Shown: positions 7,561 through 41,295 of the stretch, one piece after another
Layout of the letters: the number at the start of each line of letters is the position of its first letter
Numbering within the stretch: position 1 is the first letter of the stretch
Origin: an uncultured Lachnospiraceae bacterium
Lineage (GTDB): Bacteria; Bacillota; Clostridia; Lachnospirales; Lachnospiraceae
Assembly (NCBI GenBank): GCA_946558465.1
Contig: CAMNTM010000003.1
Coordinates: forward strand, 186,001 to 250,000
Length of the DNA stretch: 64,000 bases
Reading direction: 5' to 3'
Notes under the pieces: generated by a model
Told to the model about the DNA's origin: nothing
Databases searched by the model: none
The model's input: only the letters and a program-made list of their open reading frames with translations
Position numbers and translations under genes: made by a program

Positions 7561-7602
7561 AGTAATTCCTTCCGCTCCTGTCTATTTTTCGACATTTTAT
7601 TA

Positions 7603-7631: not shown

Positions 7632-7671
7632 GTTTTTGACAACCTTGCAATACTTACTGTATATAAATAAA

Positions 7672-7707
7672 GGAGCCGCAGAAAAAATGAAAATTCACAG
7701 CAGCTCC
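7672..7707 (-). terminator. Terminator of the chemotaxis receptor gene
   Basis: On the minus strand GGAGCTGC pairs with GCGGCTCC (one U-G pair), followed by TTTATTTATATA. It lies about 55 bp after the receptor stop codon. Confidence 0.7.
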
Positions 7708-7762
7708 ATCAAGACCAGATCACACATATTCTCTTTAAATGCTTCAGGCCAGGCCGAAAAGT

Positions 7763-9790: not shown

Positions 9791-10113
9791 AAAAATTCCC
9801 CCGCAATAAAGAAGTAAAATTTGGACTAGATAAATCTTAAATTCCTTTTGCTTCGATAAAATATAATATGCTTTTTATTTTTTTAATCATTTTATCACGA
9901 ATTTATCTGTTTTTCAAGTAAGTTGTTTCTCATTTTAGCAAAATTCCGGTTTATCAAAACAACAGTAAAACCATTGACAAAACACTTTACAAAACGGTAC
10001 TATTAATACTACCATATAATATTTTAATTATAAAACAGGTATGGCCTGTTCACAAATAAATATCATAAAATAAATCAAAAGCCGGACATAGGCACTTAAA
10101 ATATGGAGGCATT
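9791..10113. promoter_or_regulatory. Divergent intergenic region between MCP and LacI genes
   Basis: An AT-rich 323-bp gap. A candidate plus-strand promoter is TTGACA (9974-9979) with an 18-bp spacer to TACTAT (9998-10003). AACAGG/CCTGTT with a 5-bp gap (10034-10050) is a possible LacI-type operator. I see no small gene. Confidence 0.45.
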
Positions 10114-11154: not shown

Positions 11155-11169
11155 ACCACCAAACATATG

Positions 11170-11211
11170 GGGTGCCGTAAAATCATCAAATCAAATGATT
11201 GAACGACACCC
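11170..11211. terminator. Convergent terminator between LacI and amidohydrolase genes
   Basis: GGGTGCCGT pairs with ACGACACCC (one mismatch) around an inner AATCAT/ATGATT pairing. It lies between two converging genes and can serve both. Confidence 0.55.
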
Positions 11212-11247
11212 TGCATATTTATCTATCTATTTTGCAGAAACCTTCTT

Positions 11248-12615: not shown

Positions 12616-13033
12616 AAAATCCCTCTTTTCATCTTAAAAATTTTACCCGTATACATACACTTTTTGATTAATAATTAATAATCCTACGAGTACTACTCTT
12701 TTATTTTGTCCACGCGCACATATTTTATTTGACTATAATATAGCATCTTGCAAATTATTATGCAACCACTTTTTTATATATTTTCCCTAAAATATTATTT
12801 TAATTTTATGGAATTTTAAAGTTAATTCATATTTTATGCAACTTTTTTATTATTTTTATAATATTTTATCTTTTTTACGTTTTTGAATTGACACCTTTTA
12901 ATTATAATAGTATTATAAATTTATTCGTAATGTTCGCGCGGTTATTTTATTTTGAATCTTTTTATCCAAAAGACATAAAAACTCTGCTAATTGATTAATT
13001 GATTAATGTGGAATTTAAAAAGGAGAAAATATT
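12616..13033. other. Very AT-rich divergent control region
   Basis: A 418-bp gap of strongly AT-rich sequence between the amidohydrolase and the NCS1 permease. It contains a consensus promoter for the permease (12888-12916) and tandem TTGATTAA units in the permease leader (about 12990-13006). No coding frame is convincing. Confidence 0.6.
12888..12916 (+). promoter_or_regulatory. Sigma-A promoter of the NCS1 permease
   Basis: TTGACA (12888-12893), a 17-bp spacer and TATTAT (12911-12916). It predicts a 5' leader of about 110 nt that includes the TTGATTAA direct repeats, a possible operator. Confidence 0.7.
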
Positions 13034-14434: not shown

Positions 14435-14486
14435 ATTAAACCGAATAAATTGAATTTAATTATCAAATAAATGTACAATTAAAACA

Positions 14487-14531
14487 AAACCGCTGCTGCT
14501 CAGATACTATTTATCTTTGCAGCAGCGGTTT
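14487..14531 (+). terminator. Terminator of the NCS1 permease
   Basis: A perfect 13-bp stem AAACCGCTGCTGC / GCAGCAGCGGTTT followed by CGTTTTCTT. Confidence 0.85.
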
Positions 14532-14890
14532 CGTTTTCTTCGGCTTGGAGCAGGGACATTCTTATGCTTCTATAGTTTTTGGTCCGATTTATATTTTTCA
14601 TTGATTCGCTGTTTTTCACTTCAATTATATTGGCAATGCGGTTTCATTTTTAACCGCCTCGAATTGCACATGATTACACTCTTGATTATCTTTATCATGC
14701 ATTGATAATACTTTCTGGCGACTTATGGGACAAAAGCACAGCCGTGTCAACGGTATTACCACATTCCCACAAGATTTAATGCTATTCCTAATCTTGTATC
14801 TACTATATTTGAATTTGGCTAATCAAATTCAGTGCTTGGTAAGACGAAAATATTATCCTTGTACTTGTTGGTCTCCATTTCTTTATTGCT
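14532..14890. other. Gene-free stretch at the distal end of the restriction-modification island
   Basis: No full gene is visible. The stretch holds an orphan RlmD-like tail (14695-14772, minus strand) and a small GCGGTT/AACCGC inverted repeat (14638-14657). It looks like degraded boundary sequence between the RM genes and the NCS1 terminator. Confidence 0.5.
14695..14772 (-). pseudogene. Orphan RlmD/RumA-like C-terminal tail fragment
   Basis: On the minus strand, 25 codons ending in TGA read LWECGNTVDTAVLLSHKSP then ESIINA. The core V-D-T-A-V-L-L-S-H-K matches the C-terminus of the intact rlmD in this window (SVETVVMLSHKTEVQCIS). No start codon or methyltransferase body precedes it; a stop lies two codons upstream. 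The intact rlmD lies on the same strand on the other side of the RM genes, so this may be the original or exchanged gene end left by insertion of the island. The two tails differ at many bases, so it is not a simple recent duplication. Confidence 0.5.
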
Positions 14891-16288
14891 TTACTTATAC
14901 ATAGATAATGCCTTTTCTTCACCCTGCTCTATGGCTATTTCCATAAGAATAATCGCTTTTTTTAGCAATTTTTCGCCCTGTTTTCTTGCAAGAATGCTAT
15001 CACTTACCACCTCTTTAACTTTTTCCTGAATATTATCATTAATAATTGGTAATGGGATTTCCCCCAGTTCCTCCTTGCCTATCGCAGAAAGAATTGTTCC
15101 AGAACATCCTTTTTTCATTAACGCCTGTATAAATTTACTTTTAAACAACATCAGTAAGGTTTCTGGATTTATTACAGAACTTTTAAGAACATAAAATCCA
15201 TTAGTGCATATAAATCCATTATACTCTTCTGTAACTAAAGCACATTTTGAAAGAGAACCCTCAACAGAAGAAATAATAACATCATCAGTAGCAACAATTC
15301 TTCTTGCTCTTGTTGGTAATTCCAATCCCAAAAGTTTGTCACAATCAGAAATATCACCCTCTTGCCCTACATTAGCTAATTCAATATATGAATATTCTGC
15401 CTTATCCTCTGGTATATAGTTTTTATCTTTGATAATGCAAATATCTTTTATTAACCCATATCCGTTAGAATATCCTTTCAAAATTCTATTGTAATCATCA
15501 TACTTATCTTGATAATATTCTGCGTCAAATCTTCCAGATAAATTTACAGAACAAGAAAATTTTCTTATTGAAAATTTTTCTTTTGACTCTACATATGTAT
15601 TTATTCCAATATCCTCAGATAAAAAGATTTCTGCTTTTTCAATCAATCTTCTAGATTTATCAAATTTTTCATTTGCCGCAACTACAATCTCTGTAATAGT
15701 GTCACAGATTTTATCAGACATTATAGGTATCATCAAAGACTTTATCAGTGCCATATTTATATTTGGTTGTCCCGTAATAGTTTTAAATCTATTAATCTGA
15801 TTTTGTCCGTATCTTGAATTAAGAAACGTAGAAACATAATAAGGGGGTACACCGTCCTTTAATGTTATCTTAGCTATTGCCTGATTAGAACTGCATATGA
15901 AATCTTTGTCATATACAGCCACTCTACCTAAATATTCGCCCGCCATTGTAACCAGAACTTGATTTTTCTTGCAGTGGGATTTATAAAGCATTTTATGGCT
16001 TGCTCCATCAACACATCTCACATTGTTCCAATTAATATAATTATAACGAACATTTTGAGTCATAAGAAAAGGAATACCCTCATCAACAAAAACTATGTCG
16101 TTACACAAAGAATATGCACCAAAATTTTGAATTGATTTCATTTCCTTTTCGATTGTACTAGGATTCATACCTTTCAAAATTTTGTCTGTTCTAACATAGT
16201 CCTTCTTATATGTACTAGCATCTATTCTGAAATCAATTATATTTTTGCATATACTCATATTTATTTCTATTGCTTCTAACCCATCCAT
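14891..16288 (-). CDS. Type I/IIB restriction-modification specificity subunit (HsdS-like)
   Basis: A 465-residue DNA-recognition subunit with two target-recognition regions (residues about 25-215 and 255-440). Each ends in a helical spacer, for example KICDTITEIVVAANEKFDKSRRLIEKAE and NIQEKVKEVVSDSILARKQGEKLLKKA; the repeated layout is typical of HsdS and BcgI-B. An N-terminal ATG at 16288 has no ribosome-binding site. The frame stays open upstream with coding-like sequence (LNDPSVTSFDEVHYKQL) as far as the methyltransferase stop codon, where a slippery heptamer lies, so translation may begin by frameshifting from the methyltransferase gene. Base composition is clearly more AT-rich than the flanking genes. 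The sequence it recognises cannot be predicted. Confidence 0.82.
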   Translation of the reverse strand: MDGLEAIEINMSICKNIIDFRIDASTYKKDYVRTDKILKGMNPSTIEKEMKSIQNFGAYSLCNDIVFVDEGIPFLMTQNVRYNYINWNNVRCVDGASHKMLYKSHCKKNQVLVTMAGEYLGRVAVYDKDFICSSNQAIAKITLKDGVPPYYVSTFLNSRYGQNQINRFKTITGQPNINMALIKSLMIPIMSDKICDTITEIVVAANEKFDKSRRLIEKAEIFLSEDIGINTYVESKEKFSIRKFSCSVNLSGRFDAEYYQDKYDDYNRILKGYSNGYGLIKDICIIKDKNYIPEDKAEYSYIELANVGQEGDISDCDKLLGLELPTRARRIVATDDVIISSVEGSLSKCALVTEEYNGFICTNGFYVLKSSVINPETLLMLFKSKFIQALMKKGCSGTILSAIGKEELGEIPLPIINDNIQEKVKEVVSDSILARKQGEKLLKKAIILMEIAIEQGEEKALSMYK

Positions 16289-16335
16289 TAACTGTTTATA
16301 ATGTACTTCATCAAAGGACGTTACGGATGGGTCAT

Positions 16336-18306
16336 TCAGAAAAAACTCAAATGTTCCTTTTTCGCAAACTCAATAAATGCCTCGGCAATTCCATCTTCTG
16401 TAAGTCCATCATGGTTATATAAATCATGCTTTACAATTAAATGTTGGTGTTCATCACGCATATAGGAACCATCTTCATTTGTACAGTAAATTTTTTCACC
16501 AGAATTATCTTTACTTAGTTCCTGCATTGTAGCAAAGAAAATAGGGTAATCATCCTTTTTAGGACATAATTTGTCATCCCATTTCTGAACAAAGAGAACA
16601 GAAGTCTTTGTACCTGTATGTGGTTTAAATACATTACCATGTAAACCAACTACAGCTAAAATTCTACATCTTTCAGCAATAAAGTCACGAATATATTTAT
16701 CAGAAGCATTGTTGAATCTACCCTGTGGCAATACAATAGCCATTCTTCCGCCATCTTTTAAGAAAGATAAATTTCTTTCTATAAACAGAATATCTCTGCC
16801 CACCTTAGATTTATATCTGCCTTTTGCGTTTTTTCCTAACTCATATTTTGTAATAATACGACTTTCCTTAATATCTCCTGCAAACGGAGGGTTAGCCATC
16901 AGTATATCAAACTTAAAATCTCTATTTTGATTTTTGGTAGTTCTCATTGCTCTTAAACCCTTCCAGCCTTCATGGTAAATATCTTCCCATTCTTCATCTT
17001 TGGTAAGGTCATCCCATCTCTCATAATCTAATGTATTTAAGTGCATTACATTAGTTCGACCATCACCAGCAATTAAATTCAAGGTTCTGGCAACACGAAC
17101 GGCTTTTGTATCAAAATCAATCGCAAATACGTTTTCTTTTACATAATCCTCACACTCTGGCGATTTCTTTTCCGTTGTAAAAAGATGACTCTGAGGAATG
17201 CCTTTTTCCGAAAGAATGCTCTTCCACACATGAAAAATTGTATGTACAGGGAAACCACAACTACCAGCCGCAGTATCAATCATTTTTTCATCTTTTTTAG
17301 GATTTAACATTTTTACACACATATCAATAACATATCTTGGTGTAAAATACTGTCCTTTTTCGCCTTTTTGAGATTTGCTCATCAAATATTCAAAAGCATC
17401 ATCCACCACATCAAGATTTGAATTAAATAATTTCACATCTTGTAAGCTGGCAACACACACTGATAAGTGCGAAGCAGTAAGTGTTATTTTCTCATCAGCA
17501 TTAAAAACACCTTCCCATTTTTTCTTTGCCTTATTAAACAATTTCTGAATATTCGTTTTTAAATCTTCGTCAGTATCTCCATAATTACGAAATTCTAGCG
17601 TTCTTGTTTTATCTCTACCGCTTTCCATTTCATCATATAACTTTGTGAAAATAAGTTTGAATACTTCTTCAAAAACATCAACCCCAGCATTGGCAAGAAC
17701 TTCATCCTCCATTTCTTCGATAAGCCCTTTGAGCGACTTTTTCTCACTTACCAATTTATCTTTTTTTACTAAATCATCAATTGTCCATCTCTCTGTCAGA
17801 ATATCTTTCAACTTCTGATTTTCATTTGGAATATTTGGAATGTCCTCAAAGAAATTAGGGTCTTTTCTGTGATAGTAAGAAATCTGATCACCATTTGTCC
17901 ATACACCTATAATAGCTCCCGTTGCATTACAGTATGATTTAAGTTGCTCCTTGCCATCCTTTAATTTGGGCTTTTTTAATTCAACAATAATTTCTTCAGC
18001 AGTTGAATTACTTTTACTAAAGATAACAATATCTGCACGCTTCTTTTCTCTACCAAAATTTATTACCCTTTCCAGTTCCATACGCTCAACAGGATAACCA
18101 TATTCATGCACCAGTTTATAAATATAAAGCTGCCTTACAATTTCCTCCGGTTTTAACAGAATGTCTTTATTTCTCACAAGACACTTTACATATGTTTTTC
18201 CGTTTTTAATGACAATGTTATTTTCAATCGCATTAATTGCTTCCTCTGAAAACTGTGTTAATTTATAGTTTGACTCCTTAATTATAGAAACTAAAATCTG
18301 GCTCAT
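16336..18306 (-). CDS. Restriction nuclease / N6-adenine methyltransferase fusion (BcgI-A-like)
   Basis: A 656-residue protein that combines two activities. Residues about 50-150 match the HSDR_N-type PD-(D/E)xK nuclease domain (RADIVIF with D92; IIVELKKPK with E109 and K111; GVWTNGD). Residues about 205-560 form a type I HsdM-like methyltransferase: GQYFTPRYVID (318-328), SAM motif I DTAAGSCGF (344-352), and catalytic motif ANPPFAGD (NPPF 472-475). No separate hsdR is present. Together with the downstream specificity subunit it could make a complete BcgI-like (type IIB) enzyme. The start at 18306 is chosen after a GAAAGAGAG sequence; an ATG 13 codons upstream has no ribosome-binding site. 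The gene is AT-rich, consistent with horizontal transfer. Confidence 0.85.
   Translation of the reverse strand: MSQILVSIIKESNYKLTQFSEEAINAIENNIVIKNGKTYVKCLVRNKDILLKPEEIVRQLYIYKLVHEYGYPVERMELERVINFGREKKRADIVIFSKSNSTAEEIIVELKKPKLKDGKEQLKSYCNATGAIIGVWTNGDQISYYHRKDPNFFEDIPNIPNENQKLKDILTERWTIDDLVKKDKLVSEKKSLKGLIEEMEDEVLANAGVDVFEEVFKLIFTKLYDEMESGRDKTRTLEFRNYGDTDEDLKTNIQKLFNKAKKKWEGVFNADEKITLTASHLSVCVASLQDVKLFNSNLDVVDDAFEYLMSKSQKGEKGQYFTPRYVIDMCVKMLNPKKDEKMIDTAAGSCGFPVHTIFHVWKSILSEKGIPQSHLFTTEKKSPECEDYVKENVFAIDFDTKAVRVARTLNLIAGDGRTNVMHLNTLDYERWDDLTKDEEWEDIYHEGWKGLRAMRTTKNQNRDFKFDILMANPPFAGDIKESRIITKYELGKNAKGRYKSKVGRDILFIERNLSFLKDGGRMAIVLPQGRFNNASDKYIRDFIAERCRILAVVGLHGNVFKPHTGTKTSVLFVQKWDDKLCPKKDDYPIFFATMQELSKDNSGEKIYCTNEDGSYMRDEHQHLIVKHDLYNHDGLTEDGIAEAFIEFAKKEHLSFF
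16339..16345 (-). other. Canonical -1 slippery heptamer at the methyltransferase stop codon
   Basis: On the minus strand T TTT TTC is read in the methyltransferase frame and is followed at once by its TGA stop (16336-16338). Slipping back one base enters the frame of the specificity subunit, which is open from here through its first ATG at 16288. This would give one R-M-S polypeptide of about 1,140 residues. Seen: heptamer, stop, open -1 frame. Inferred: frameshifting occurs. Confidence 0.45.
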
Positions 18307-18348
18307 TTGTTTTCTCTCTTTCGTTTTAATATTATCATAATGCATTAT

Positions 18349-18381
18349 AAGTAATACGAATTTTGGGTTTAGATATTACTT
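18349..18381. promoter_or_regulatory. Inverted repeat upstream of the RM genes
   Basis: AAGTAATA / TATTACTT (8-bp arms, 17-bp gap) lies between rlmD and the RM genes, next to a TATAAT-like -10 on the minus strand. It may be a weak terminator of rlmD or an operator controlling RM expression. Confidence 0.35.
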
Positions 18382-18422
18382 TCCTATGGACTCTTTAATC
18401 ACTTTATAGATAACTCTCTCTT

Positions 18423-19832
18423 TTAGCTTATGCACTGCACCTCTGTTTTGTGGGAAAGCATTACAACCGTCTCAACACTCACCGTCTGCGGAAACATATC
18501 CACCGCTCTGCCCTTCATCAGCTCATATCCACATCTCCGCAAAAATTTTACATCTCTAGCCAAAGTTGCCGAGTCACAACTCACATACACAATCCTATCC
18601 GGCTGCATGTCTGCTATCGTCTGAAGCAGAGCCTCGTCACATCCCTTACGCGGAGGATCTACCACTATTACATCCGCATGCGCTTTTTCTCCGCCATGTT
18701 TTTCCTCATATTTTCTATAATATTCCGGCAGAATCTCCTCCGCTTTACCTACATAAAACCGGACATTTTCTATTCCGTTAATCCGTGCATTATTTTTCGC
18801 ATCCTCTATCGCCTGGGGTACAATCTCTACGCCATATACCTTCTTCGCACGCTGTGCCAGAAAAAGAGAGATTGTCCCAATCCCGCAATATAAGTCCCAC
18901 ACAATCTCCTCTCCCGTAAGACCTGCATACGAAAGTGCCAGTTCATATAGTCTTTCTGTCTGAACCGGATTTACCTGATAAAAGGAGAGCGGCGATATCT
19001 GATACTCTATATTTCCGATATAGTCCGTAATATAGCTCCTCCCCCACAGCGTACGGACAACATCCCCCATAATAACATTTGTTCTTTTCTTGTTGATATT
19101 CAGAGTTATACTAGTCATTCCATCAAGTGCGGCAAGTCTCTTAACCAGCTCATCGCTGTGAGGAAGCGTATCTCCATTCACAATAAAACTTACCATAATC
19201 TCTTGTGTAGAAAACCCATAACGAATCAATATATGCCGGACCAGCCCTCTATGAGTCTCCTCACAATAGGCCGAAATTCCATATTCCTTCATAAATGCAA
19301 GAAGGATTTTCAAAATTCTCTCATTTACCTCCACGCCAAGTACACAGTCTGTGTTCGGTATTATACTGTGGGTACGGCCGGCATAAAACCCTGTTACAAG
19401 ATTACCTTCCCTGTCTGTTCCGACCGGAAACTGCGCTTTATTCCGGTAATGGAACGGCTCCTCCATTCCCACAATCGGCTCCATAATAGAGGATAATACT
19501 TCCTCAGGAACCTCCCCGATACGCATAAGATTTCCTCTTACCTTTTCCTCCTTAAACCTAAGCTGCCTTTCATAAGCCATCTCCTGAATCTGACAGCCCC
19601 CGCATCTTCTGGCCTGCGGACATACGGGTTTCACACGGCACTCCGATGGAACAAGAATATTCATAAGCCGCGCATATCCATAATTCTTCTTGGCTTTTAT
19701 AATCTTAGCCTCCACTATATCGCCGATAACTGCATCCTTTATAAATAACGTATACCCATCTACCTTTCCGATTCCTTCGCCGCCGGTTCCTATATCTTCT
19801 ATTACAACCTTAACAATGTCATTCTTCTGCAT
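18423..19832 (-). CDS. rlmD: 23S rRNA (uracil-C5)-methyltransferase RlmD/RumA family
   Basis: A 469-residue SAM-dependent enzyme. An N-terminal TRAM domain (residues about 2-60) is followed by the iron-sulfur cysteines C71, C77 and C80, with a further Cys in NTDCVLG. The Rossmann methyltransferase domain shows WDLYCGIGTISL and VVDPPRKGCD, and the catalytic Cys is in YVSCDSATLARD. The family makes 5-methyluridine in 23S rRNA; U1939 versus other positions cannot be told apart. GGAGAA before the ATG at 19832 sets the start. The C-terminus (MLSHKTEVQCIS) resembles the orphan tail beyond the RM genes, so its 3' end may have been exchanged when the island inserted. Confidence 0.88.
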   Translation of the reverse strand: MQKNDIVKVVIEDIGTGGEGIGKVDGYTLFIKDAVIGDIVEAKIIKAKKNYGYARLMNILVPSECRVKPVCPQARRCGGCQIQEMAYERQLRFKEEKVRGNLMRIGEVPEEVLSSIMEPIVGMEEPFHYRNKAQFPVGTDREGNLVTGFYAGRTHSIIPNTDCVLGVEVNERILKILLAFMKEYGISAYCEETHRGLVRHILIRYGFSTQEIMVSFIVNGDTLPHSDELVKRLAALDGMTSITLNINKKRTNVIMGDVVRTLWGRSYITDYIGNIEYQISPLSFYQVNPVQTERLYELALSYAGLTGEEIVWDLYCGIGTISLFLAQRAKKVYGVEIVPQAIEDAKNNARINGIENVRFYVGKAEEILPEYYRKYEEKHGGEKAHADVIVVDPPRKGCDEALLQTIADMQPDRIVYVSCDSATLARDVKFLRRCGYELMKGRAVDMFPQTVSVETVVMLSHKTEVQCIS

Positions 19833-19875
19833 AAATATTCTCCACTCTCTTAATTTGGGACAGGACAATGGACAA

Positions 19876-19913
19876 TTGGGGACGGGGTAAAATGAATTTT
19901 ACCCCGTCCCCAA
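19876..19913. repeat. GGAC palindromic repeat, copy 1
   Basis: 18-bp arms containing GGGGACGGGGTAAAAT and its complement around a 2-bp centre. It overlaps the end of yhaM: the last four codons and the TAA stop lie inside it. Copies 2 and 3 are at 27796-27839 and 51263-51298. It can fold into a very stable hairpin and probably terminates transcription. Confidence 0.9.
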
Positions 19914-20849
19914 CACTGTCTTGCGCAAGTTTGACTCAAACAGTCTGTTGTACCCAATCCAGTCATTTGTATGCTTTTCCTTAAATATCTCTGTCAATGT
20001 CTGCATCTTGGCATCTGCACAATCTGCGAAATTAAGTGCCAATGCTTCTGCAAGCGCTGGTTTTTTTGGAGAGCCATACTCAAGCTCACCGTGATGTGCT
20101 ATAATACAGTGCTTGAGTTCACTCGCCAGCTGTTCTGGGAATCCGGGTATCGTACGCACTGCATCACTGACCATCTCTACACCGATAACGATATGCCCTA
20201 AAAGCTGCCCGTCATCTGTATAATCATTTTCCGGAAATGAAGACAGCTCTTTAGTTTTTCCGATATCATGGCAAATCGCCGCCGCATACAGCAGGTCTTT
20301 ATTTAGAATGGGATAAGCGCCTGCCATATACTCACAGAATTTAACTACACTGAGCGTATGCTCTAAAAGTCCTCCTGAAAATCCATGATGTACGCTTTTT
20401 GCCGCCGAATGGGCTTTGAATTTTTTTACAAATTCCATATCCTTTACAAAATAATATTCTACTGCCTGTTTAAGATACGGATTTCCAATCTGCCTGATAA
20501 ATCCAAGAAGCTCCTGGTACATGCTGTCTGTGCTTTTTTCTGTCGTCGGCATATAGTCCGCCGGTATGTATTCGCCTTCAGACGCTTTTCGTATCTGCTT
20601 GATATTTAGCTGGAGATTATTATTATAGCTGATAACATCTCCGTATACCTCTATAAAATCCATCTCTTCATACTCTGCTATCCCGCTGGAATTTGGATCC
20701 CACACCTTTCCGTCAAGCGTCCCTGTCTTATCCTGCAGAATCAGATTGTCATAAGGCTTTCCATTTCGCGTCTCTGCAGAACGCTTCCCCTTGCACAAAT
20801 ATATATTTCGTATCGTCTCTCCTTCTACTAACGTATTTACATATCTCAT
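19899..20849 (-). CDS. yhaM: 3'-5' exoribonuclease YhaM family (OB fold + HD domain)
   Basis: A 316-residue protein, close to B. subtilis YhaM (about 314). Residues about 10-90 form a nucleic-acid-binding OB fold (KPYDNLILQDKTGTLDGKVW). Residues about 160-285 form an HD metal hydrolase domain with H in GGLLEHTLSV, the HD pair in AAICHDIGKT, and later H residues in LGHIVIG and IIAHHGE. YhaM trims RNA or DNA 3' ends. The last four codons (L-G-T-G) and stop come from the GGAC palindrome, so the native C-terminus has been replaced or slightly extended. It lies in a run of minus-strand genes between the HtrA-like gene and rlmD. Confidence 0.9.
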   Translation of the reverse strand: MRYVNTLVEGETIRNIYLCKGKRSAETRNGKPYDNLILQDKTGTLDGKVWDPNSSGIAEYEEMDFIEVYGDVISYNNNLQLNIKQIRKASEGEYIPADYMPTTEKSTDSMYQELLGFIRQIGNPYLKQAVEYYFVKDMEFVKKFKAHSAAKSVHHGFSGGLLEHTLSVVKFCEYMAGAYPILNKDLLYAAAICHDIGKTKELSSFPENDYTDDGQLLGHIVIGVEMVSDAVRTIPGFPEQLASELKHCIIAHHGELEYGSPKKPALAEALALNFADCADAKMQTLTEIFKEKHTNDWIGYNRLFESNLRKTVLGTG

Positions 20850-34317: not shown

Positions 34318-34707
34318 TCAACAATCCAACATCTTGTCACAAACTGACATCGTAAGTGTATAATCGATCAGACTGAAATCCTTTTTGTGGGACTCTGGTA
34401 TCTGCTCTAAGATTTTCTTATTTGCATCAAACATTGCACAAAATCCTTCTACTCTTAGGATATCCCCTGCCGTATGATCCTTGCGGATATTCTTTGGTTC
34501 CAAAACTATGGTCAGATAGGGTGTCGGCCGTTCTCTTCTGCCTGCCATCGGGTCGGCCGCCAGCTGATAATCTGTCATAAGATACTCCCTGGAAATTTCT
34601 GCCACATCTTTTGACGTACCGTCTATTTGAATGATTTCAAAGTATTTCTCCATTGCTGATTTTAAAAAACGGAGCTTACCGTTGTTCGTAACAATCAGGT
34701 TTTTCAT
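34318..34707 (-). CDS. grdX: GrdX-family protein
   Basis: A 129-residue protein beginning MKNLIVTNNGKLRFLKSAM, with the GrdX-like signature of an N-terminal (I)VTNN strand and a central DPMAGRRERPTPYLTIVLE. GrdX accompanies glycine, sarcosine and betaine reductase operons in Clostridia; its function is not known. The start at 34707 is preferred over 16 codons upstream, which would overlap the selenoprotein gene; GAGGG lies before it. It is 16 bp downstream of the component B selenoprotein gene and is the last gene of the operon. Confidence 0.75.
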   Translation of the reverse strand: MKNLIVTNNGKLRFLKSAMEKYFEIIQIDGTSKDVAEISREYLMTDYQLAADPMAGRRERPTPYLTIVLEPKNIRKDHTAGDILRVEGFCAMFDANKKILEQIPESHKKDFSLIDYTLTMSVCDKMLDC

Positions 34708-34723
34708 GAAAGTCTTTTCCCTC

Positions 34724-36019
34724 TTATTTGAATACAGTCTGTTCCTTGATGTCAATCGTAAGTGTTCCTAATGCTTTCTTGACCAATTCATATCTTGCTT
34801 CCTTCTCTGCCTCTTTATCCAGATCCGGAAAGCCTGTTGGATTTGAAATTGCAGTTGCAGGATAAATTCTGTTTGCACCAACTGCTTTTGAAATCGGTAC
34901 AATCGTACACAGATGTGCTGCCGGAATTCCTACTTCATCTAATTCCTTTACGAGCGTTGCACCGCAACGCGTACAGGTACCTCATGCAGAAGTAAGAAGA
35001 ACCCCGTCTACTCCGGCTTCCTTTAATGTCTGGGCAATCTCTTTGCCAATCTTTTCCGCACGATCAACCGGCATACAATTTCCAACCGTTACTGTAAATT
35101 TTTCATAAAGGTCTCCAATATATCCTTCTTCCTCAAGCCGCAAAGCCGCATCTACCGGAAGTGCCCTGTTTCCATTACTCGTCGCATATACTGGAGTATA
35201 TCCTCCGTGAGCCACAAAGGTATCCGGCATCTCTACTCCTCCGTAGTCTTCCATTTCATAGGTGCCCCATACAGTAGCCGCATGCGCCTCGATATGGTCC
35301 GGATTGCCTTCCGGAACCACACCGCAGGTTGTAACAAGAGCAATCTTTGCCCTTGATAAGTCTTTAATTGCCGGACTAATCGGCGACATATGAAACTTCG
35401 GCATCTTAAGTTCTGTCTCAAATGATTCCCCTTTAAGCTTTTTGAGGAGCATATCAACACTCCTTACTGCCCCTGTTTTTTCCGTTGTATAGTAATGCCT
35501 GATTCCTCTTGTAAAATAACCGCATGCTTCACTGTCGTAGACATCTTCTCCCCGGCAGAGCTTATTGACAAAGCCGGCCATCTTAGGCATCACCTTTCTC
35601 ATACCGGAGGCATTATTTGACGTCGGAAAAATATAGCCGAATTTTCCGTACACCTCACGTCCCGGATTTTCTTCAAACATTCCTGAAACAGCCGGAATTC
35701 CAAGAAAGAACGCAATCCTGCAGACCAATCCGCAGGCCATCCCATAACGCCCTGCATTAAAAGCCGGTCCTGCAACTACCAAATCAATCTTCTTTTCCCT
35801 GATAACTTCTGTAATCTTTTCTTTCAGCAGCTCTTCATTTTCTACTGCATAATTATCTCCACAGACAACTGTTACAGCAATTTTATTTCCTTCCTCCAGC
35901 AATCCTGACATGGCCATAGAAGGTCCTATTGATTCTTCTCTTACTTCAAAAGGATGATCTGCCTTTTCTTCCCCTCCAATCTGACCGAAAAACTGATTAA
36001 TATAATATAAAATATTCAT
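34724..36019 (-). CDS. Selenoprotein component B subunit of glycine/sarcosine/betaine reductase family (GrdB/GrdF/GrdH), Sec at UGA
   Basis: The full product is 431 residues with selenocysteine encoded by TGA at 34982-34984 (residue 346). Reading stops there if UGA is taken as stop; beyond it the frame continues for 85 codons to TAA. Across the TGA the protein reads LLTSA-U-GTCTRCGATLVKE, the exact GrdB active-site motif UxxCxxC. The N-terminus (YYINQFFGQIGGEEKAD) and VAGPAFNAGRYGMACG are also GrdB signatures, and the end KEQTVFK matches the family. A bacterial SECIS hairpin follows the UGA. Component B activates its amine substrate and passes a carboxymethyl group to selenoprotein A. The substrate cannot be assigned: glycine, sarcosine, betaine or another. 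Subunit partner is the adjacent GrdE-type proprotein. Confidence 0.93.
34954..34984 (-). promoter_or_regulatory. Bacterial SECIS element with its UGA codon
   Basis: UGA (34982-34984) is followed after 11 nt by GCGTTGC / GCAACGC, a perfect 7-bp stem (34964-34970 with 34954-34960) capped by a GGT loop. The loop starts 18 nt after the UGA, within the usual 16-37 nt, and has G as its first base, as required for SelB recognition. Confidence 0.88.
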
Positions 36020-36045
36020 TCTTATGCCCGTCCTTTCCTTAAATA

Positions 36046-37323
36046 CTAATAAGTCTTTCCTGTTCGAGTCGTGATACCGAGGTTACTTACAGAATCCATA
36101 ATTGACGCAAGACGGACTCTTAGACATCCGTCCGGCTGAAGCGGATTTACCCCGCATCCTGCCAGATTCTCAAGAGCATCTGCGTGACCGATCACTTTCT
36201 CCATCTTAGGAAGGTACACATATTCATTTACATTTCCTAAGGTTACAACAGCATCCGCCTTTGGATTGGTATTGGCAAGCGGCTCCGATTCCCCATAATC
36301 GCCTGATACCTCATGAAGAAGAATCACACATTTAATCCCTCTGTCTTCTGCTGCTTCCGCGATCATCATGATGTCTGCTTCCGGATTTCCTCCTCCTTCT
36401 TCTGCAATAATCAATGCATCCGCATGACAAACACTTGCGATATTTGCGGTACAAAGTGCTCCTCTCTCCTTTCCCGCAAGATATGCATTACTTGGAGTAG
36501 AAATAACCCCGCAAAAATCCACCTCCCTGCCATGTCTCTTATAAAGCTCCATAATAACCGGATTATTTTCGTAATCGAAAGTTGTATTTTTAGTAGATGC
36601 TGTAACGCAGTTCCCTGATACTACCGCACCATCCAGTAATTCATTTGGATGCATTAAGGTTGTCTGAAGCTTCTTTTCATCCATTCCATATACGTAGTTA
36701 TCATGAAGAAGCCCCTGTGCAAGAAGAAGATTCACGTACATCACCCTCGGAAGCTTCTTCTCTGGATCGACAGATGGAAGTGAGAATTCCTCCTTCTCAT
36801 CTCCTTCAACATCCATACATGATTTTGCCAGATAATGTGCCAGCTTAATTCCCGCTGTTCTTACTGCTGCTTCATGTACTTCCGGTTCAATCCCTTCGAT
36901 TGGTTCTGCAATCAAGACCACGTGATTTCTTTTCCCATATGGACAATACTCGGCACCGGGGCCTGACATATCAATGATACCTTCCTGAAAGCCCACGATT
37001 CTTCCGGTTGTAACAACATCACAGCCTCTTAACACCTTTGTAACACCTTCCCCAATCCCTTCATATCCCCCAAGAAATCCGGGGAAAAACTCTCCTGTTT
37101 CTGCCTTTACGCGAGGCTCAATTACGTCCTTTACAGGAATAATCCTGACATTTTCTCCCGGTCTTGCAATGTCGAGAGAAATACTTGTAAACGCCGGATC
37201 CTGTAAAGCCTCTGCCGCTTCTTCCTCATTTACATATAGAATATGATTTCTTACTGTTGTCCTTTCTCCCCACTGAATATCGTGAATTTTAATATATTCA
37301 AGGGTCAACTTCATCTCATTCAT
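36046..37323 (-). CDS. GrdE/GrdG/GrdI-type proprotein, component B pyruvoyl subunit
   Basis: A 425-residue proprotein of the component B alpha/beta family. It should self-cleave between N238 and C239 in VVSGNCVTASTKNT, giving a small N-terminal and a pyruvoyl-capped C-terminal chain; the pyruvoyl group forms a Schiff base with the substrate amine. Other family features are FFPGFLGGYEGIGEG, SGPGAEYCPYGKRNHVV and the C-terminal GCGVNPLQPDGCLRVRLASIMD. AAGGA precedes the ATG. The gene lies 26 bp upstream of the selenoprotein gene. Which subtype (GrdE, GrdG, GrdI or new) cannot be decided without a tree. Confidence 0.9.
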   Translation of the reverse strand: MNEMKLTLEYIKIHDIQWGERTTVRNHILYVNEEEAAEALQDPAFTSISLDIARPGENVRIIPVKDVIEPRVKAETGEFFPGFLGGYEGIGEGVTKVLRGCDVVTTGRIVGFQEGIIDMSGPGAEYCPYGKRNHVVLIAEPIEGIEPEVHEAAVRTAGIKLAHYLAKSCMDVEGDEKEEFSLPSVDPEKKLPRVMYVNLLLAQGLLHDNYVYGMDEKKLQTTLMHPNELLDGAVVSGNCVTASTKNTTFDYENNPVIMELYKRHGREVDFCGVISTPSNAYLAGKERGALCTANIASVCHADALIIAEEGGGNPEADIMMIAEAAEDRGIKCVILLHEVSGDYGESEPLANTNPKADAVVTLGNVNEYVYLPKMEKVIGHADALENLAGCGVNPLQPDGCLRVRLASIMDSVSNLGITTRTGKTY

Positions 37324-37356
37324 ATCTTTTCCTTTCTTCTATATATAGATTTTCCC

Positions 37357-38790
37357 CTAGTCCTCTTTCTTTGTTTTATATAAGCCGATTCCCAGTGCTG
37401 CAATAACAATCGCTGTAATCGGATTCAAATATGTATTAAATGCCCAAACTGCATACCCATCTGTCAGATGCGTTCCAAGACAGCTGATTCCAAGAGATGT
37501 TTCATAAACACCTGCAGCAATTCCCCAGGGAATCAGCGGCATAGACATGGTTCCTGAATCCTCCATTGAACGGGACAGAACATTTAGACCAATTCTCTGC
37601 TTTTCATATGCATTCCTGTACATTTCACCCGAAAGAATAAATGCAGCATAGCTGGAACCTGCACAAGCCGCAATAAAAAAGTTTGTAAACAATGTACAGG
37701 TGATAAGCCTCAGCGGAGTCGTCGCTTTTTCAATCAGCGGCGCCGTGAACGTCTGTATGAAACCGATATGACTGATGAGCGTTGCAAAGGTATAACCGCA
37801 GTAAATAATGATAACGATTCCTACCATAGATTTCATACCTCCGCGGTTCAGCAGGCTCACCACCTCCGGACAGCACTCGTTTGAGGTAATCATGTCTACC
37901 GTAAAACCATTAATACAACTGTTAAGCCCCTTTACAAAATCAAAGCCCTGATAAAATGTCCCAATTAAAACTGCCGTAAGCGAGGCAGCAATCATACTCA
38001 GCACCGCCGATTTTTTAAAAAGTGCTCCTGCAATGATAATAACAAACGGAACCAATACAAAAATATTCCAGTGATAGGTTGATGCTAGATCATTCATCAT
38101 ATCTACGGTCATTTCCGGAAGCTCTGCCGACATCCCAACGTCAATTTTAAGTCCTAATAAAAAATAGATAAGAGCGGCTGCCGCAGCTGCCGGGAGCGTT
38201 GTCCAAAGCATGGAACGAATATGTGCATACAGATCTGTTCCTGCTGCAAGAGGTGCAAGGTTTGTTGTATCCGAAAGAGGCGAAAGCTTGTCTCCAACGA
38301 TGCAGCCGCTGACAGCCGCCGCCGCATTGATCGGCAGATTGATTCCAAGCCCTGCTGCAATTCCCATCACTGCAACCCCTCCGGTTGCGGCACTTCCCCA
38401 GGAAGTGCCGGTACAAAGCGACAAAATAGAGCAGAGCAGGAAGCTGCACAGATACATCATTTTTGGATTAATGACTTTTAATCCAAAGTAAATAACCATT
38501 GGTATTGTTCCGCTGAACATCATCGCTGCAGTAACCATCCCAATAACCCAGACAATCAGAATCGCCGGTGTCGCGCTTGCCAGCCTTTCGCTGATTGCTT
38601 CCTCAATCTCCGTCCATCCATATCCATGCCGAATTCCAAGTACCAGTGCAAACGCAGCCGCCGCAATCAGCAGAATTTCAATTCTGATTCCCAGCTTAAT
38701 GTTGCCGATGATAATAATCGTAATCAAAAAGGCAAAAACCAATACAGACTCACCAAATGTTACGACAGTTTTTTCCTTCTTTTTTTCCAT
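37357..38790 (-). CDS. NhaC-family Na+/H+ antiporter-like transporter (second copy)
   Basis: A 477-residue membrane protein with about 11-12 segments and the NhaC signature GDKLSPLSDTTNLAPLAAGTD, plus GTSWGSAATGGVAVMGIAAG. GGGAGA precedes the ATG. It lies 33 bp before the GrdE-type gene. NhaC proteins exchange Na+ for H+, and some relatives carry malate/lactate or amines. In a reductase operon, it may import the reductase substrate with Na+ or maintain Na+ balance; the choice is open. It differs clearly in sequence from the copy upstream. Confidence 0.85.
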   Translation of the reverse strand: MEKKKEKTVVTFGESVLVFAFLITIIIIGNIKLGIRIEILLIAAAAFALVLGIRHGYGWTEIEEAISERLASATPAILIVWVIGMVTAAMMFSGTIPMVIYFGLKVINPKMMYLCSFLLCSILSLCTGTSWGSAATGGVAVMGIAAGLGINLPINAAAAVSGCIVGDKLSPLSDTTNLAPLAAGTDLYAHIRSMLWTTLPAAAAAALIYFLLGLKIDVGMSAELPEMTVDMMNDLASTYHWNIFVLVPFVIIIAGALFKKSAVLSMIAASLTAVLIGTFYQGFDFVKGLNSCINGFTVDMITSNECCPEVVSLLNRGGMKSMVGIVIIIYCGYTFATLISHIGFIQTFTAPLIEKATTPLRLITCTLFTNFFIAACAGSSYAAFILSGEMYRNAYEKQRIGLNVLSRSMEDSGTMSMPLIPWGIAAGVYETSLGISCLGTHLTDGYAVWAFNTYLNPITAIVIAALGIGLYKTKKED

Positions 38791-38844
38791 AAGTATTCTC
38801 CCTGCACTGAATTTATATATCCTCTCATAAAACCGGATATATCT

Positions 38845-40263
38845 CTATTCTGCTGCTTCTACTGAAGATTTCTGCTGTTTTGTCGTAAACCACCCGGTAA
38901 ATCCAAATAAAATCGTAAGTGCAATTGAGAACCAATGAGCGAAAAAGGTCGGCATAAACTGCGACGATGTAATACCAAGACATGCAACAATCAATGCATT
39001 GCCGCCGCTCCAGGGAACCATAGCTCCTGTATGTGCAGCTCCCTCTAAAACTGTCCTTGCAAGATCCTTCTTAGAAAGTCCTAAATCCTTATACGCTTTT
39101 TCAAACATATTAGCACCAAAAATAACTCCCGTGTAATTCGCGCCGCCTAAATAGGTTCCGAAAACAGCTGTGACTAATGTAGAAATAATGACTGTCGGCC
39201 TGTTTTTTGCAAGAATACCAAGCTTGGTAATAACCGTCGGCATTACTTCGACCTCATTTAAAATACCGGCCAGGAACAATGCACAGAAGATAATGACAGT
39301 AGTCGGCGCAACCTTAAGTATTCCTCCTCCGGTAAGAAGCTTGTCTACATTTTCAACACCTGTCTCACAAACGATACCATTATAAATCCAGGATAAATTT
39401 TCTGCCAGTGAGCTTCCCTGGTATAAAACTGCAACAATAATTGCCGCCGCTGTTGAAATTGCAAGTGACGGAATCGGCGGTTTTTTCATAATTGATAAAA
39501 CAATAATTAAGATAACCGGAATCAGCGTAATTACACTGATATGATAAATATCGCTGATGTTATTAATCAATGCATTAATTGATTCCGTCTCCATTGTTCC
39601 GCTTGAATATCTTGTTCCGAGAACGGCAAATGTAACTGCTGCAAGCACAGCGCCAAGTCCACTGGTGGGAAGATTGTACTTAAATACATCGAAAGCATTC
39701 AATCCCGTAACAGCGCCCGCAAGGTTTGTTGTATCCGAAAGGGGGCTCCATTTATCGCCGACCCAGCAGCCGCTGACGATTGCACCGCCTGCAATTCCAG
39801 CAGGAATTCCAAGACCCTGGGCAATTCCCATCATAGCGACTCCAAAGGTTGCAACTGTTGTCCAGGAAGAGCCTGTTGTGATAGAACCAATAGAGGTGAG
39901 CAAAAATGCTGTTACCAGAAAAATTGACGGCTCTACAATTTTAAGTCCAAAAACAATTAAAGTCGGAATCGTACCGGCTGCAAGCCATGCCGCGCTGATA
40001 AAGCCTACCATCAGCAATACAAATACGGAGGGAAGACCCGCTTTAAACATTTCCATAACACTGCCGAACAGTTCATCCCAAGTATGATGCATAACAAACA
40101 TTGCATAAACTGCCGTTACTGCGGTGCATAATACGATAGAAACTCCCGTCGGATATTTTCCTATTCCAAATGCAAAAATCACAACATAGGAAACAAGCAG
40201 CAAAACTGATTCCCAAAAGGTTATGTGTCTTTTTTCTTTTATCTGTCTCTTAGTTTCTTCCAT
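38845..40263 (-). CDS. NhaC-family Na+/H+ antiporter-like transporter (first copy)
   Basis: A 472-residue membrane protein with the same family signature (VGDKWSPLSDTTNLAGAVTGL and GSITTGSSWTTVATFGVAMMG). It is the first gene of the operon and lies 54 bp upstream of the second copy. Two NhaC-type carriers head the locus. They may be a substrate importer and an exchanger, or be specific to different amines. The GntR operator and promoter lie upstream at 40405-40437. AAGGAA precedes the ATG. Confidence 0.86.
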   Translation of the reverse strand: MEETKRQIKEKRHITFWESVLLLVSYVVIFAFGIGKYPTGVSIVLCTAVTAVYAMFVMHHTWDELFGSVMEMFKAGLPSVFVLLMVGFISAAWLAAGTIPTLIVFGLKIVEPSIFLVTAFLLTSIGSITTGSSWTTVATFGVAMMGIAQGLGIPAGIAGGAIVSGCWVGDKWSPLSDTTNLAGAVTGLNAFDVFKYNLPTSGLGAVLAAVTFAVLGTRYSSGTMETESINALINNISDIYHISVITLIPVILIIVLSIMKKPPIPSLAISTAAAIIVAVLYQGSSLAENLSWIYNGIVCETGVENVDKLLTGGGILKVAPTTVIIFCALFLAGILNEVEVMPTVITKLGILAKNRPTVIISTLVTAVFGTYLGGANYTGVIFGANMFEKAYKDLGLSKKDLARTVLEGAAHTGAMVPWSGGNALIVACLGITSSQFMPTFFAHWFSIALTILFGFTGWFTTKQQKSSVEAAE

Positions 40264-40586
40264 GATTCTCTTTCCTTTCTGTTAAAAAACTATCCCTCAT
40301 ATTTGTTTTGATTTAAACGCCTAAACCAAAAGTAACATTCCAGTTTTTGTTAATTTCCCTTATTTTCCTCCTTTATTTTAGCTTTAACTAGACATGTTTG
40401 TTATAAACTAGTATACCAGTTTTGGATTTATTGTCAATATGCTGGCTCTTAAATTATTCAAAAAGTAAATTTACCCTTCCTTTTATCAGGTTTATCTATT
40501 AAAAAATGTCAAAAAAAATTGCTTTACCTATTTAAGTCTAGTACAATTAATATATGATTTATTTTCTTTAACAAAGGGGTGAGAAT
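40264..40586. other. Divergent control region of the grd-like operon and its GntR regulator
   Basis: A 323-bp AT-rich gap without genes. It contains the operator/promoter at 40405-40437 and, closer to the GntR gene, a related CTAGTACAA sequence near 40545 that may be a second site. Confidence 0.6.
40405..40437 (-). promoter_or_regulatory. Operon promoter overlapped by a GntR/FCD operator
   Basis: TTGACA (40432-40437), a 16-bp spacer and TATACT (40410-40415) on the minus strand. The near-perfect palindrome AAACTAGTATACCAGTTT (40405-40422) covers the -10 box; its TNGTNNACNA-like core is typical of FadR-subfamily GntR operators. Repression by the divergent GntR protein is inferred. Confidence 0.72.
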
Positions 40587-41222
40587 GTGAATAAATCAGA
40601 TGAGATTTACAATTATATCAGAGATGAGATTACGCAGGAACGAATGTGCGTCAACCAAAAAATAAAGGTAACTGAACTGGCCCGTCAGTTTGAAGTATCC
40701 AAAATCGTTGTTAAAACTGCGCTTAAAAAGCTGGAATATCAAGGCTGGGTATATTCCAAATCTAAAAGCGGTACTTATGTCGCTCCGCTAGAATCAGAAG
40801 AATTAAAACAAAATTTTCAGGTTCGAATGTTATTAGAACCAAACATTGTTGTAATGGCTGTTCCATACATAAGCAAAGAAGAATTACTCCAGTTACAGAA
40901 TAACTGTCAGTCTATGTCTAATCCTTCTATTACGCCGGAGGAATTCCTGAAAATTGAAAAGAAAAACCATAAAATTATTGAAAATAACTGTCCCAACCGC
41001 GTCCTTGTCCGTATTGTAGAAGATCTAAACGATAGTTATTCACGCCTGGGAATGATTACCCGTGACCCCATACGGAGATCAGAAAGCGCCTCTGAATGGA
41101 AAAAAATCACGGACGCAGTCGAAAATAAGGATAGTGAACTTGCCAAATTTTACATGATAAGACATATTATCAATGCAACGGATGCGTTCTGGACAAATGT
41201 TGTCCCTCAAAGCAAAGAATGA
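40587..41222 (+). CDS. GntR-family regulator, FadR/FCD type
   Basis: A 211-residue regulator with an N-terminal winged helix (residues about 5-67: VTELARQFEVSKIVVKTALKKLEYQGWVYSKSKSGTYVA) and an all-helical FCD ligand domain (about 80-205: RMLLEPNIVVMAV, FLKIEKKNHKIIE, MIRHIINATDAFW). The start is GTG at 40587 after AGGGGTGA. It is divergent from the NhaC-Grd operon, with a palindromic operator on the operon promoter, and probably senses the substrate of the reductase. Its stop codon is built into the first bases of the terminator stem shared with rpoC. Confidence 0.88.
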   Translation: MNKSDEIYNYIRDEITQERMCVNQKIKVTELARQFEVSKIVVKTALKKLEYQGWVYSKSKSGTYVAPLESEELKQNFQVRMLLEPNIVVMAVPYISKEELLQLQNNCQSMSNPSITPEEFLKIEKKNHKIIENNCPNRVLVRIVEDLNDSYSRLGMITRDPIRRSESASEWKKITDAVENKDSELAKFYMIRHIINATDAFWTNVVPQSKE

Positions 41223-41252
41223 GAAAAAGCAGGAGACCTCCTGCTTTTTCTC
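41221..41252. terminator. Bidirectional terminator between gntR and rpoC
   Basis: 15-bp perfect arms GAGAAAAAGCAGGAG / CTCCTGCTTTTTCTC around AC. It begins within the TGA of the GntR gene and lies 43 bp after the rpoC stop. Confidence 0.9.
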
Positions 41253-41295
41253 ATTCTTTATTTATCTGCTTCTTTATTCTTTTCAAGATTTTGAA

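What the first reader, a model, noticed from the sequence alone, without database searches (positions are those of the whole stretch)
34318..40263. Stand-alone component B reductase locus with two NhaC carriers and no components A or C
Operon order is NhaC, NhaC, GrdE-type, GrdB-type(Sec), GrdX under a GntR/FCD regulator. Known glycine, sarcosine and betaine clusters include thioredoxin genes, grdA, grdC and grdD nearby, or BCCT-type betaine carriers. Here only the substrate-specific B component is present, with two Na+/H+-antiporter-type transporters. This fits an accessory B component that uses components A and C from elsewhere for an unassigned amine substrate.
Basis: partly seen in the sequence, partly recalled or inferred. 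Interest (0 to 1): 0.75.

Follow-up and report, generated by a model that had tools for sequence, protein, structure and literature searches.

The report
Stand-alone reductase module for unknown amine
A bacterium that already carries genes for the glycine, sarcosine and betaine forms of a selenium-containing, energy-yielding reductase also carries, as an extra gene cassette, the substrate-grabbing part of a further form that fits none of these substrates and may let it use a bulkier amine.

Summary
On the minus strand lie NhaC, NhaC, a GrdE-type subunit, a selenocysteine GrdB-type subunit (UGA 346, Rfam SECIS_4 hairpin behind it) and GrdX, with a divergent GntR/FCD regulator. The genome has one GrdA and a GrdC/GrdD set in a glycine reductase cluster on another contig, and eight full-length GrdB genes. 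A stand-alone B component that borrows A and C is therefore well supported. It is not glycine-, sarcosine- or betaine-type: it misses those cut-offs, the AU test rejects each grouping, and it sits in a six-member clade (100/100 in both subunit trees). The block is absent from the matching place in 5 of 5 sister genomes: a cassette. Stand-alone B modules as such are known (far operon, riboflavin fin genes, DCMF). New are this clade, its NhaC association, and a residue pattern: the pyruvoyl cysteine is kept (N-H amine expected) while the aromatic of EEG[F/Y]GNP is glycine (larger pocket inferred). The substrate is unproven; boldest guess: an N-carboxymethyl amino acid such as carboxymethyl-lysine, cleaved to amino acid plus acetyl phosphate.

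The parts
40587..41222 (+). GntR/FCD-family regulator, divergent from the operon; probable operon regulator (inferred)
   Evidence: PF07729 FCD 64.1 bits, PF00392 GntR 50 bits; part of the block missing from 5 of 5 sister genomes
40405..40437 (-). promoter-like site TTGACA-16-TATACT with TG before the -10 (40437-40410), overlapped by a palindrome AAACTAGTATAC/GTATACCAGTTT (40405-40422), candidate regulator operator
   Evidence: consensus matches only: 23 promoter-like sites in the region against 18.0 +/- 3.7 in shuffles
38845..40263 (-). NhaC-family carrier 1 (472 aa)
   Evidence: PF03553 132 bits; TIGR00931 348.8/370, ArcD model NF052307 287.4/650
37357..38790 (-). NhaC-family carrier 2 (477 aa), 31% identical to carrier 1, so not a recent duplicate
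   Evidence: PF03553 157.1 bits; TIGR00931 364.1/370; BLASTP
36046..37323 (-). GrdE/GrdG-type subunit of component B (425 aa); keeps the cysteine (C239 in SGN-C) that becomes the pyruvoyl group in GrdE; EEGGGNPE instead of EEG[F/Y]GNPD
   Evidence: PF09338 526.8 bits; alignments
34724..36019 (-). GrdB-type selenoprotein subunit of component B (431 aa), Sec346 in SAUGTCTRC; T269 replaced by V and T316 by M
   Evidence: AlphaFold2 model mean pLDDT 91.5
34944..34981 (-). selenocysteine insertion element (SECIS_4) directly 3' of the UGA
   Evidence: RF01990 45.7 bits, gathering 38; fold -14.4 kcal/mol, z -1.46
34318..34707 (-). GrdX-family protein (129 aa), function unknown
   Evidence: NF038093 39.4 bits against cut-off 40, E 4.9e-10; start after the GrdB stop read

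Best explanation
This is an inducible, substrate-specific protein B module that plugs into the cell's single glycine-reductase core. Inferred steps: a GntR/FCD regulator senses the substrate; NhaC-family carriers import it (perhaps in exchange for the released amine); the GrdE-type subunit is self-cleaved at C239 to a pyruvoyl protein and, with the selenoprotein GrdB, holds a primary or secondary amine; the carboxymethyl (or similar) group is passed to the selenocysteine of GrdA from the C19 cluster, and GrdC/GrdD release it as acetyl phosphate, giving one ATP while thioredoxin supplies electrons. The substrate is not glycine, sarcosine or betaine, and is probably larger than these. Shown here: the genes, the UGA with SECIS, the one-A many-B genome, the distinct clade, the kept cysteine, the cassette state. 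Inferred: regulation, transport, use of the C19 GrdA/GrdCD, larger pocket, product. The chemistry of the core is established knowledge of glycine reductase (summarised in PMC10838667 and PMC13188914, passages).
For: Own genome: 8 full-length GrdB places and one GrdA; GrdA, GrdC, GrdD equivalogs on C19 at 272.9/130, 804.4/450 and 577.2/350 bits. Three sibling GrdB proteins reach a named equivalog: C19 glycine 725.7/602.2, C1 sarcosine GrdF 815.4/800 (with GrdG 865.7/780), C5:65k betaine 830.7/775; the C5:127k GrdE-type protein is FarE 900/675; the GrdB proteins of the window, C22 and the two C4 copies reach no named class. In a 200-genome family draw, the 21 genomes with a full-length GrdB are the same 21 that have GrdA, and at least 12 of 21 have more GrdB than GrdA; the own genome has the most, 8:1 (counted by hand from their listings). 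Distinct clade of 6 rows, 100/100 in GrdB and GrdE trees; AU rejects glycine, sarcosine and betaine placement. C239 in 6 of 6 clade rows, absent in 7 of 7 betaine-type and 2 of 2 FarE-type rows. G311 in 6 of 6 clade rows against F or Y in 74 of 74 glycine, sarcosine, betaine and Parvimonas-type rows; M316 of GrdB in 6 of 6 against 0 of 88 other rows. A glycine riboswitch stands before the C19 cluster and none was found at the window operon. NhaC-family genes within 6 kb of GrdB in 3 of 79 loci (some overlapping), all three in this clade.
Against: No expression, binding or activity data. The role of the GrdE pyruvoyl is debated: PMC9908766 (passages) cites a view that it only keeps GrdB active, so the cysteine may not report the amine class. 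At four GrdB columns that separate glycine from sarcosine types the clade has the glycine letters. No relative is in the PDB copy searched and model coordinates could not be measured, so 'larger pocket' rests on conserved positions, chosen after looking, and on strand-end placement. The clade is not uniform: 3 of 6 GrdB rows have Asp for the first Cys of UxxCxxC, and its neighbours differ from locus to locus; only 3 of its 5 loci have NhaC. TRAP-type rows L146/L147 share (C239, G311), and C4-type and fin-like rows share G311, so neither is unique to the clade.
Confidence: 0.72

Rival explanations
1. It is a redundant or condition-specific glycine or sarcosine reductase B component: a diverged paralogue with the same substrate under another regulator and carrier.
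For: At GrdB columns that separate glycine from sarcosine types, the clade carries the glycine letters at A270, P276, R285 and N314. Pyruvoyl cysteine kept. In L081 two clade members sit beside grdC, grdD and trxB.
Against: Below glycine and sarcosine equivalog cut-offs; AU rejects both groupings; the aromatic of EEG[F/Y]GNP and two threonines constant in 73 of 73 glycine, sarcosine, betaine and Parvimonas-type GrdB rows are changed; no glycine riboswitch found; the genome already has a complete glycine cluster and a sarcosine-type pair.
Confidence: 0.2
2. The pair works without components A and C, as D-proline reductase (PrdA/PrdB, a homologous pyruvoyl/selenoprotein pair) does, giving a reduced product and no acetyl phosphate.
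For: No A or C gene in the operon; weak similarity to PrdA (51 bits) and PrdB (86 bits).
Against: Full GrdB architecture (TIGR01918 515.5 bits); the genome has a separate PrdA at 1005/700 bits; 21 of 21 family genomes with full-length GrdB also have GrdA.
Confidence: 0.08
3. The two NhaC proteins are ordinary Na+/H+ antiporters that balance ions during amine fermentation, not substrate carriers.
For: Both score close to the NhaC equivalog cut-off (364.1 and 348.8 of 370). PMC11477304 (passages) says the function of an NhaC-family protein under a lysine riboswitch is unknown and may be true antiport.
Against: Other B loci carry an organic-solute carrier near the pair: BCCT, NSS (Pfam SNF), SSS or a YkvI-like protein (name recalled; no Pfam match), TRAP genes. 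PMC5584792 (passages) lists LysW, a candidate lysine carrier, in this superfamily, and the ArcD arginine/ornithine model hits both at 225.8 and 287.4 bits of 650.
Confidence: 0.3

Closest known systems
Glycine, sarcosine and betaine reductase protein B (GrdEB, GrdGF, GrdIH)
   Same: Two subunits in the same order, Sec in UxxCxxC, SECIS, GrdX partner, pyruvoyl cysteine as in the glycine and sarcosine types
   Different: Own clade in both subunits; below the three GrdB-side cut-offs; EEGGGNPE and V269/M316; no A, C or Trx beside it; NhaC-family carriers instead of BCCT
Fluoroacetate reductase far operon of Cloacibacillus porcorum (PMC10838667, parts 1-3 of 4 of the text)
   Same: Transporter plus protein B pair predicted to feed shared A and C; that paper already states that many bacteria have several protein B complexes on a common reductase
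   Different: FarE lacks the pyruvoyl cysteines and the operon has MFS and radical SAM genes; window GrdE scores 187.5/675 on the FarE model. The own genome has a separate FarE at 900/675
fin neighbourhood of Clostridium scindens, finHI (PMC12934955, abstract and passages)
   Same: Grd-type pair in a gut Lachnospiraceae neighbourhood induced by riboflavin, a bulky compound broken down to lumichrome; the fin-like loci found here also have G at the 311 position
   Different: fin-like GrdE lacks the pyruvoyl cysteine and sits with riboflavin kinase, aldolase, ADH and ALDH genes; I saw none of these next to the window operon
GrdX-GrdE-GrdB-NSS operons of Parvimonas, Filifactor and relatives (loci L083, L084, L088, L091, L097, L099, L101)
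   Same: Stand-alone B operon with GrdX and one carrier, in several loci near a GntR gene; pyruvoyl cysteine kept
   Different: Other clade; Y at 311; NSS carrier (Pfam SNF in the two tested); substrate unassigned here too
Two unassigned B components of DCMF (PMC6778437, passages)
   Same: Published precedent for B components that group with no known substrate class
   Different: Four of the five DCMF clusters have trxA/trxB by that paper; a DCMF B component (L111) lies far from this clade in the tree

Membership tests
Glycine/sarcosine/betaine reductase component B (broad family) | GrdB-type selenoprotein with UxxCxxC plus GrdE-type partner | tested here: met
   TIGR01918 515.5/65.45; PF07355 441/22; PF09338 526.8/22.2; UGTCTRC
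Glycine/sarcosine/betaine reductase component B (broad family) | UGA read as Sec: SECIS element and Sec machinery | tested here: met
   RF01990 45.7/38 at 34944-34981 minus; SelA in genome. SelB, SelD and tRNA-Sec not tested
Glycine/sarcosine/betaine reductase component B (broad family) | Components A and C available in the cell | tested here: met
   GrdA one copy; GrdA/C/D equivalogs on C19
Glycine reductase GrdB | Equivalog score and clade | tested here: not met
   TIGR01917 469.6/602.2; AU p 3.0e-52
Sarcosine reductase GrdF/GrdG | Curated score and clade | tested here: not met
   NF040794 492/800, NF040793 424.6/780; AU p 5.7e-41
Betaine reductase GrdH/GrdI | Curated score, clade, no pyruvoyl cysteine | tested here: not met
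   NF040795 462.6/775; AU p 5.3e-08; C239 present while 7 of 7 betaine-type rows have F
Fluoroacetate reductase FarE | Equivalog score | tested here: not met
   NF053623 187.5/675
Na+/H+ antiporter NhaC (equivalog) | TIGR00931 cut-off 370 | tested here: not met
   364.1 and 348.8 bits; the Pfam family PF03553 is met
Pyruvoyl-dependent GrdE | Autocatalytic cleavage before the cysteine | not testable with these tools
   The cysteine and its SGN-C context are present; cleavage needs mass spectrometry
Any assigned substrate class | Turnover of the named substrate | not testable with these tools

The most novel reading that the evidence does not exclude
The clade reduces N-carboxymethyl amino acids (secondary amines R-NH-CH2-COO-, such as carboxymethyl-lysine from heated food, strombine or N-carboxymethyl-GABA), freeing the amino acid and making acetyl phosphate. 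The NhaC carriers would swap the adduct for the freed amino acid, as ArcD swaps arginine for ornithine. This fits the kept pyruvoyl cysteine together with Gly in place of the conserved aromatic. It also fits amino-acid or amide enzymes near relatives, none of them conclusive: an alanine-dehydrogenase-like gene behind GrdX in L115 (281.6 bits, below its cut-off 391.85), a divergent GABA transaminase gene beyond the sigma-54 gene in L082 (519.1/506.65 on one model, below the cut-off of the others listed), and carbon-nitrogen hydrolases in L081 that reach no equivalog. PMC9501902 (passages) says identified products account for under 10% of degraded carboxymethyl-lysine, that little is reported on its degradation pathways, and names Cloacibacillus evryensis among degraders; PMC10838667 reports eight grdB genes in C. 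porcorum MFA1.
Probability: 0.13. Interest if true: 0.85.

Novelty: new variant of a known kind. Interest (0 to 1): 0.52.

Why it matters
Protein B is the substrate gate of an ATP-yielding selenium pathway. A genome with one A/C core and eight B modules, four of them unassigned, shows the core used as a common outlet for several compounds. The two-position pattern in GrdE (pyruvoyl cysteine yes or no; aromatic or Gly at 311) offers a simple, testable way to sort unassigned B modules into N-H amine or other, small or large. If the substrate of this clade were found, it would put a gene to an anaerobic amine-degrading activity that has none assigned now.

Tried and rejected

Rows dropped: the GrdB tree used 68 of 94 extracted rows and the GrdE tree 66 of 96; most of those left out were glycine-type rows close to ones kept, the rest duplicates, short pieces or the PrdA row. 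The column screen used 46 rows per subunit; searches counted all 94 and 96. Conserved columns were found by looking, so they are post hoc, and the clades given to the AU tests were named after the tree was seen. Stand-alone counts: 24 of 63 GrdB ORF entries (L013 gives three, L144 two), or 21 of 58 loci; 'stand-alone' there means no A/C/D hit within 6 kb. Counts may be lower bounds (9 places for the own genome there, 10). The NhaC count used BLAST with four NhaC proteins at E 1e-5; distant ones and those beyond short flanks would be missed, and the 79 loci include a few overlapping stretches. Literature searches for prior description: open-licence papers only. One search listed one paper with both NhaC and glycine reductase (PMC8894896); its passages name them as separate genes of an Enterococcus.
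Full report
What is there. The minus strand carries, in order, two NhaC-family carriers, a GrdE-type subunit, a GrdB-type selenoprotein and GrdX, with gaps of 54, 33, 26 and 16 nt, and a divergent GntR/FCD gene lies on the plus strand. GrdB is 431 aa with UGA as residue 346 in SAUGTCTRC, followed directly by an Rfam SECIS_4 element of 45.7 bits against a gathering score of 38. SelA is present.

The rest of the machine. The genome has one GrdA. It lies in a complete glycine cluster on C19, grdX-E-B-trxB-trxA-A-C-D (the trx names rest on 58-59% identity to annotated genes of the Enterococcus gilvus cluster), with GrdA, GrdC and GrdD above their equivalog cut-offs and a glycine riboswitch in front. 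There are eight full-length GrdB places. By curated models the GrdB of C19 is glycine, of C1 sarcosine and of C5:65k betaine type, and the C5:127k GrdE-type protein is fluoroacetate reductase FarE at 900/675 bits; the GrdB proteins of the window, of C22 and of two C4 copies reach no named class. In a draw of 200 family genomes 21 have GrdA; the same 21 have a full-length GrdB, and at least 12 have more GrdB than GrdA. The own genome is the extreme at 8:1 (counted by hand from the listings). This is what a shared A/C core with exchangeable B modules predicts.

Which B it is. In a GrdB tree of 68 rows the window protein lies in a six-row clade (100/100) with the own C22 copy, two copies in rumen MAG RUG14038 (L081), one in Bacilliculturomica massiliensis (L082) and one in G868 (L115). 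The GrdE tree gives the same six. Forcing the window GrdB into the sarcosine, betaine or glycine group is rejected (AU p 5.7e-41, 5.3e-08, 3.0e-52). The clade is thinly spread: the best family hit outside the own genome is 50% identical.

A cassette. In 5 of 5 sister genomes of the same genus, a feoB relative starts 0.6 to 1.3 kb after rpoC, with a fur relative between them in at least three (two by BLAST, one read by eye), and no ORF there hits an operon gene; the whole block from GntR to GrdX is missing. The M24 and PutP-like genes downstream belong to the older neighbourhood, not to the module. Base composition is ordinary. No target-site duplication was sought systematically.

Clues to the substrate. 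GrdE of glycine reductase is cut at a cysteine to give a pyruvoyl group, and betaine GrdI and FarE lack it (PMC10838667; C. difficile GrdE pyruvoyl shown by mass spectrometry in PMC9908766, passages). At that column the window has C239, as do 6 of 6 clade rows, 45 of 45 glycine, 11 of 11 sarcosine and 11 of 11 Parvimonas-type rows; 7 of 7 betaine and 2 of 2 FarE-type rows do not. This points to a primary or secondary amine. At GrdE 311, in EEG[F/Y]GNP, glycine types have F (45 of 45), and sarcosine (11 of 11), betaine (7 of 7) and Parvimonas types (11 of 11) have Y, while the clade has G in 6 of 6; in GrdB, T269 is V or I in 6 of 6 and T316 is M in 6 of 6, with M in 0 of 88 other rows. Over all 96 GrdE rows the pair (C, G) occurs in the clade and in L146/L147 only.

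A partial outside check comes from riboflavin. A 2026 preprint links a neighbourhood with a Grd-type pair (finHI) in Clostridium scindens to anaerobic breakdown of riboflavin to lumichrome; the link is by induction, and the authors also consider that the genes play another role (PMC12934955, abstract and passages). Six loci here are fin-like: Pfam finds a riboflavin kinase in all six (L176; L171-L174 and L177) and a DeoC/LacD aldolase in the three tested (L173, L174, L177); two of the six lie in sister species. All six have G at 311 and no pyruvoyl cysteine. A bulky tertiary-amine substrate (carboxymethylflavin, my inference; the word is not in that paper) would go with Gly and no cysteine, so Gly plus cysteine suggests a bulky N-H amine. 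This is suggestive only: positions were chosen after the fact, FarE has M, and 3 of 4 C4-type rows also have G.

Carriers. NhaC-family genes lie within 6 kb of GrdB in 3 of 79 GrdB loci examined (some overlapping, some with short flanks), all in this clade: window (two genes), C22 and L115. L081 and L082, the other two clade loci, show none. Other loci have BCCT, NSS (Pfam SNF), SSS or YkvI-like carriers (name recalled; no Pfam match). The superfamily includes a candidate lysine carrier, LysW (PMC5584792, PMC11477304, passages).

Control. A promoter-like site with 11 of 12 matches and TG before the -10 lies at 40437-40410 on the minus strand, and a near-perfect palindrome at 40405-40422 covers its -10 box, as expected for repression by the adjacent GntR/FCD protein. 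This is a consensus match only; promoter-like sites are little more common here than in shuffles.

How it most likely works. A substrate-induced, stand-alone protein B that loads a substrate fragment onto the shared GrdA, for release as acetyl phosphate by the shared GrdC/D. I give 0.72 to this with a substrate other than glycine, sarcosine or betaine. The boldest reading, N-carboxymethyl amino acids such as carboxymethyl-lysine, I put at 0.13.

What is known already. That many bacteria feed several B complexes into one reductase is stated in PMC10838667; unassigned B components are reported for DCMF (PMC6778437, passages). The searches showed me no paper on an NhaC-linked B component; they cover open-licence papers and I read few of those listed. 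Hence a new variant of a known kind, not a new kind.

Structure models. GrdB: mean pLDDT 91.5, pTM 0.60; residue 269 ends a strand, 316 lies in the loop after strand 307-310, and Sec346 in the loop after strand 339-343. GrdE: mean pLDDT 78.4, pTM 0.84, low confidence at 242-248, 338-353 and 408-425; 311 lies in the loop after strand 303-308. In a parallel alpha/beta fold such loops face one edge, which fits a common site, but neither the sheet order nor any distance was measured.

Noticed in passing
G000:C5, locus L013 7633-12542: A fluoroacetate-reductase-type pair (GrdE-like protein FarE 900/675 bits) in this genome, preceded by an extra N-terminally shortened GrdB-like ORF of 275 aa and followed by an amidohydrolase and TRAP genes; G191, G262 and G302 (L180, L181, L178) also have a shortened GrdB-like ORF before the pair.
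   Followed up: partly
L176 (G303:C36), L177 (G299:C3), L171, L172, L173, L174: fin-like loci: Grd-type pair with riboflavin kinase (six of six), resembling the riboflavin-breakdown neighbourhood of PMC12934955; two are in sister species of the window's genome.
   Followed up: partly
G000:C4, loci L015 and L016: Two further unassigned stand-alone B pairs that group on the betaine side but lack the pyruvoyl cysteine and the betaine score; near them an SSS symporter, an iron ADH, a DUF362 protein and a creatininase-family protein.
   Followed up: partly
L014 9718-10989, L115 4045-5337, L081 14755-16044: GrdB relatives in which the first cysteine of UxxCxxC is aspartate (UGTDTRC); the window and its two nearest relatives keep the cysteine but have Ala instead of Thr just before Sec.
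   Followed up: no
L081 (RUG14038), 4620-20325: One rumen MAG locus holds two different members of this clade, each near a carbon-nitrogen hydrolase, with a YkvI-like carrier, sigma-54 activators, trxB, grdC and grdD.
   Followed up: partly
L083, L084, L088, L091, L097, L099, L101, L112: A separate stand-alone GrdX-GrdE-GrdB clade in Parvimonas, Filifactor and relatives, mostly with an NSS-type carrier behind it (7 of these 8); substrate unassigned.
   Followed up: no
window 41214-41259: Long hairpin (20 pairs) between the convergent GntR and rpoC ends, probably a two-way terminator; Rfam matches it only by models below their gathering scores.
   Followed up: no
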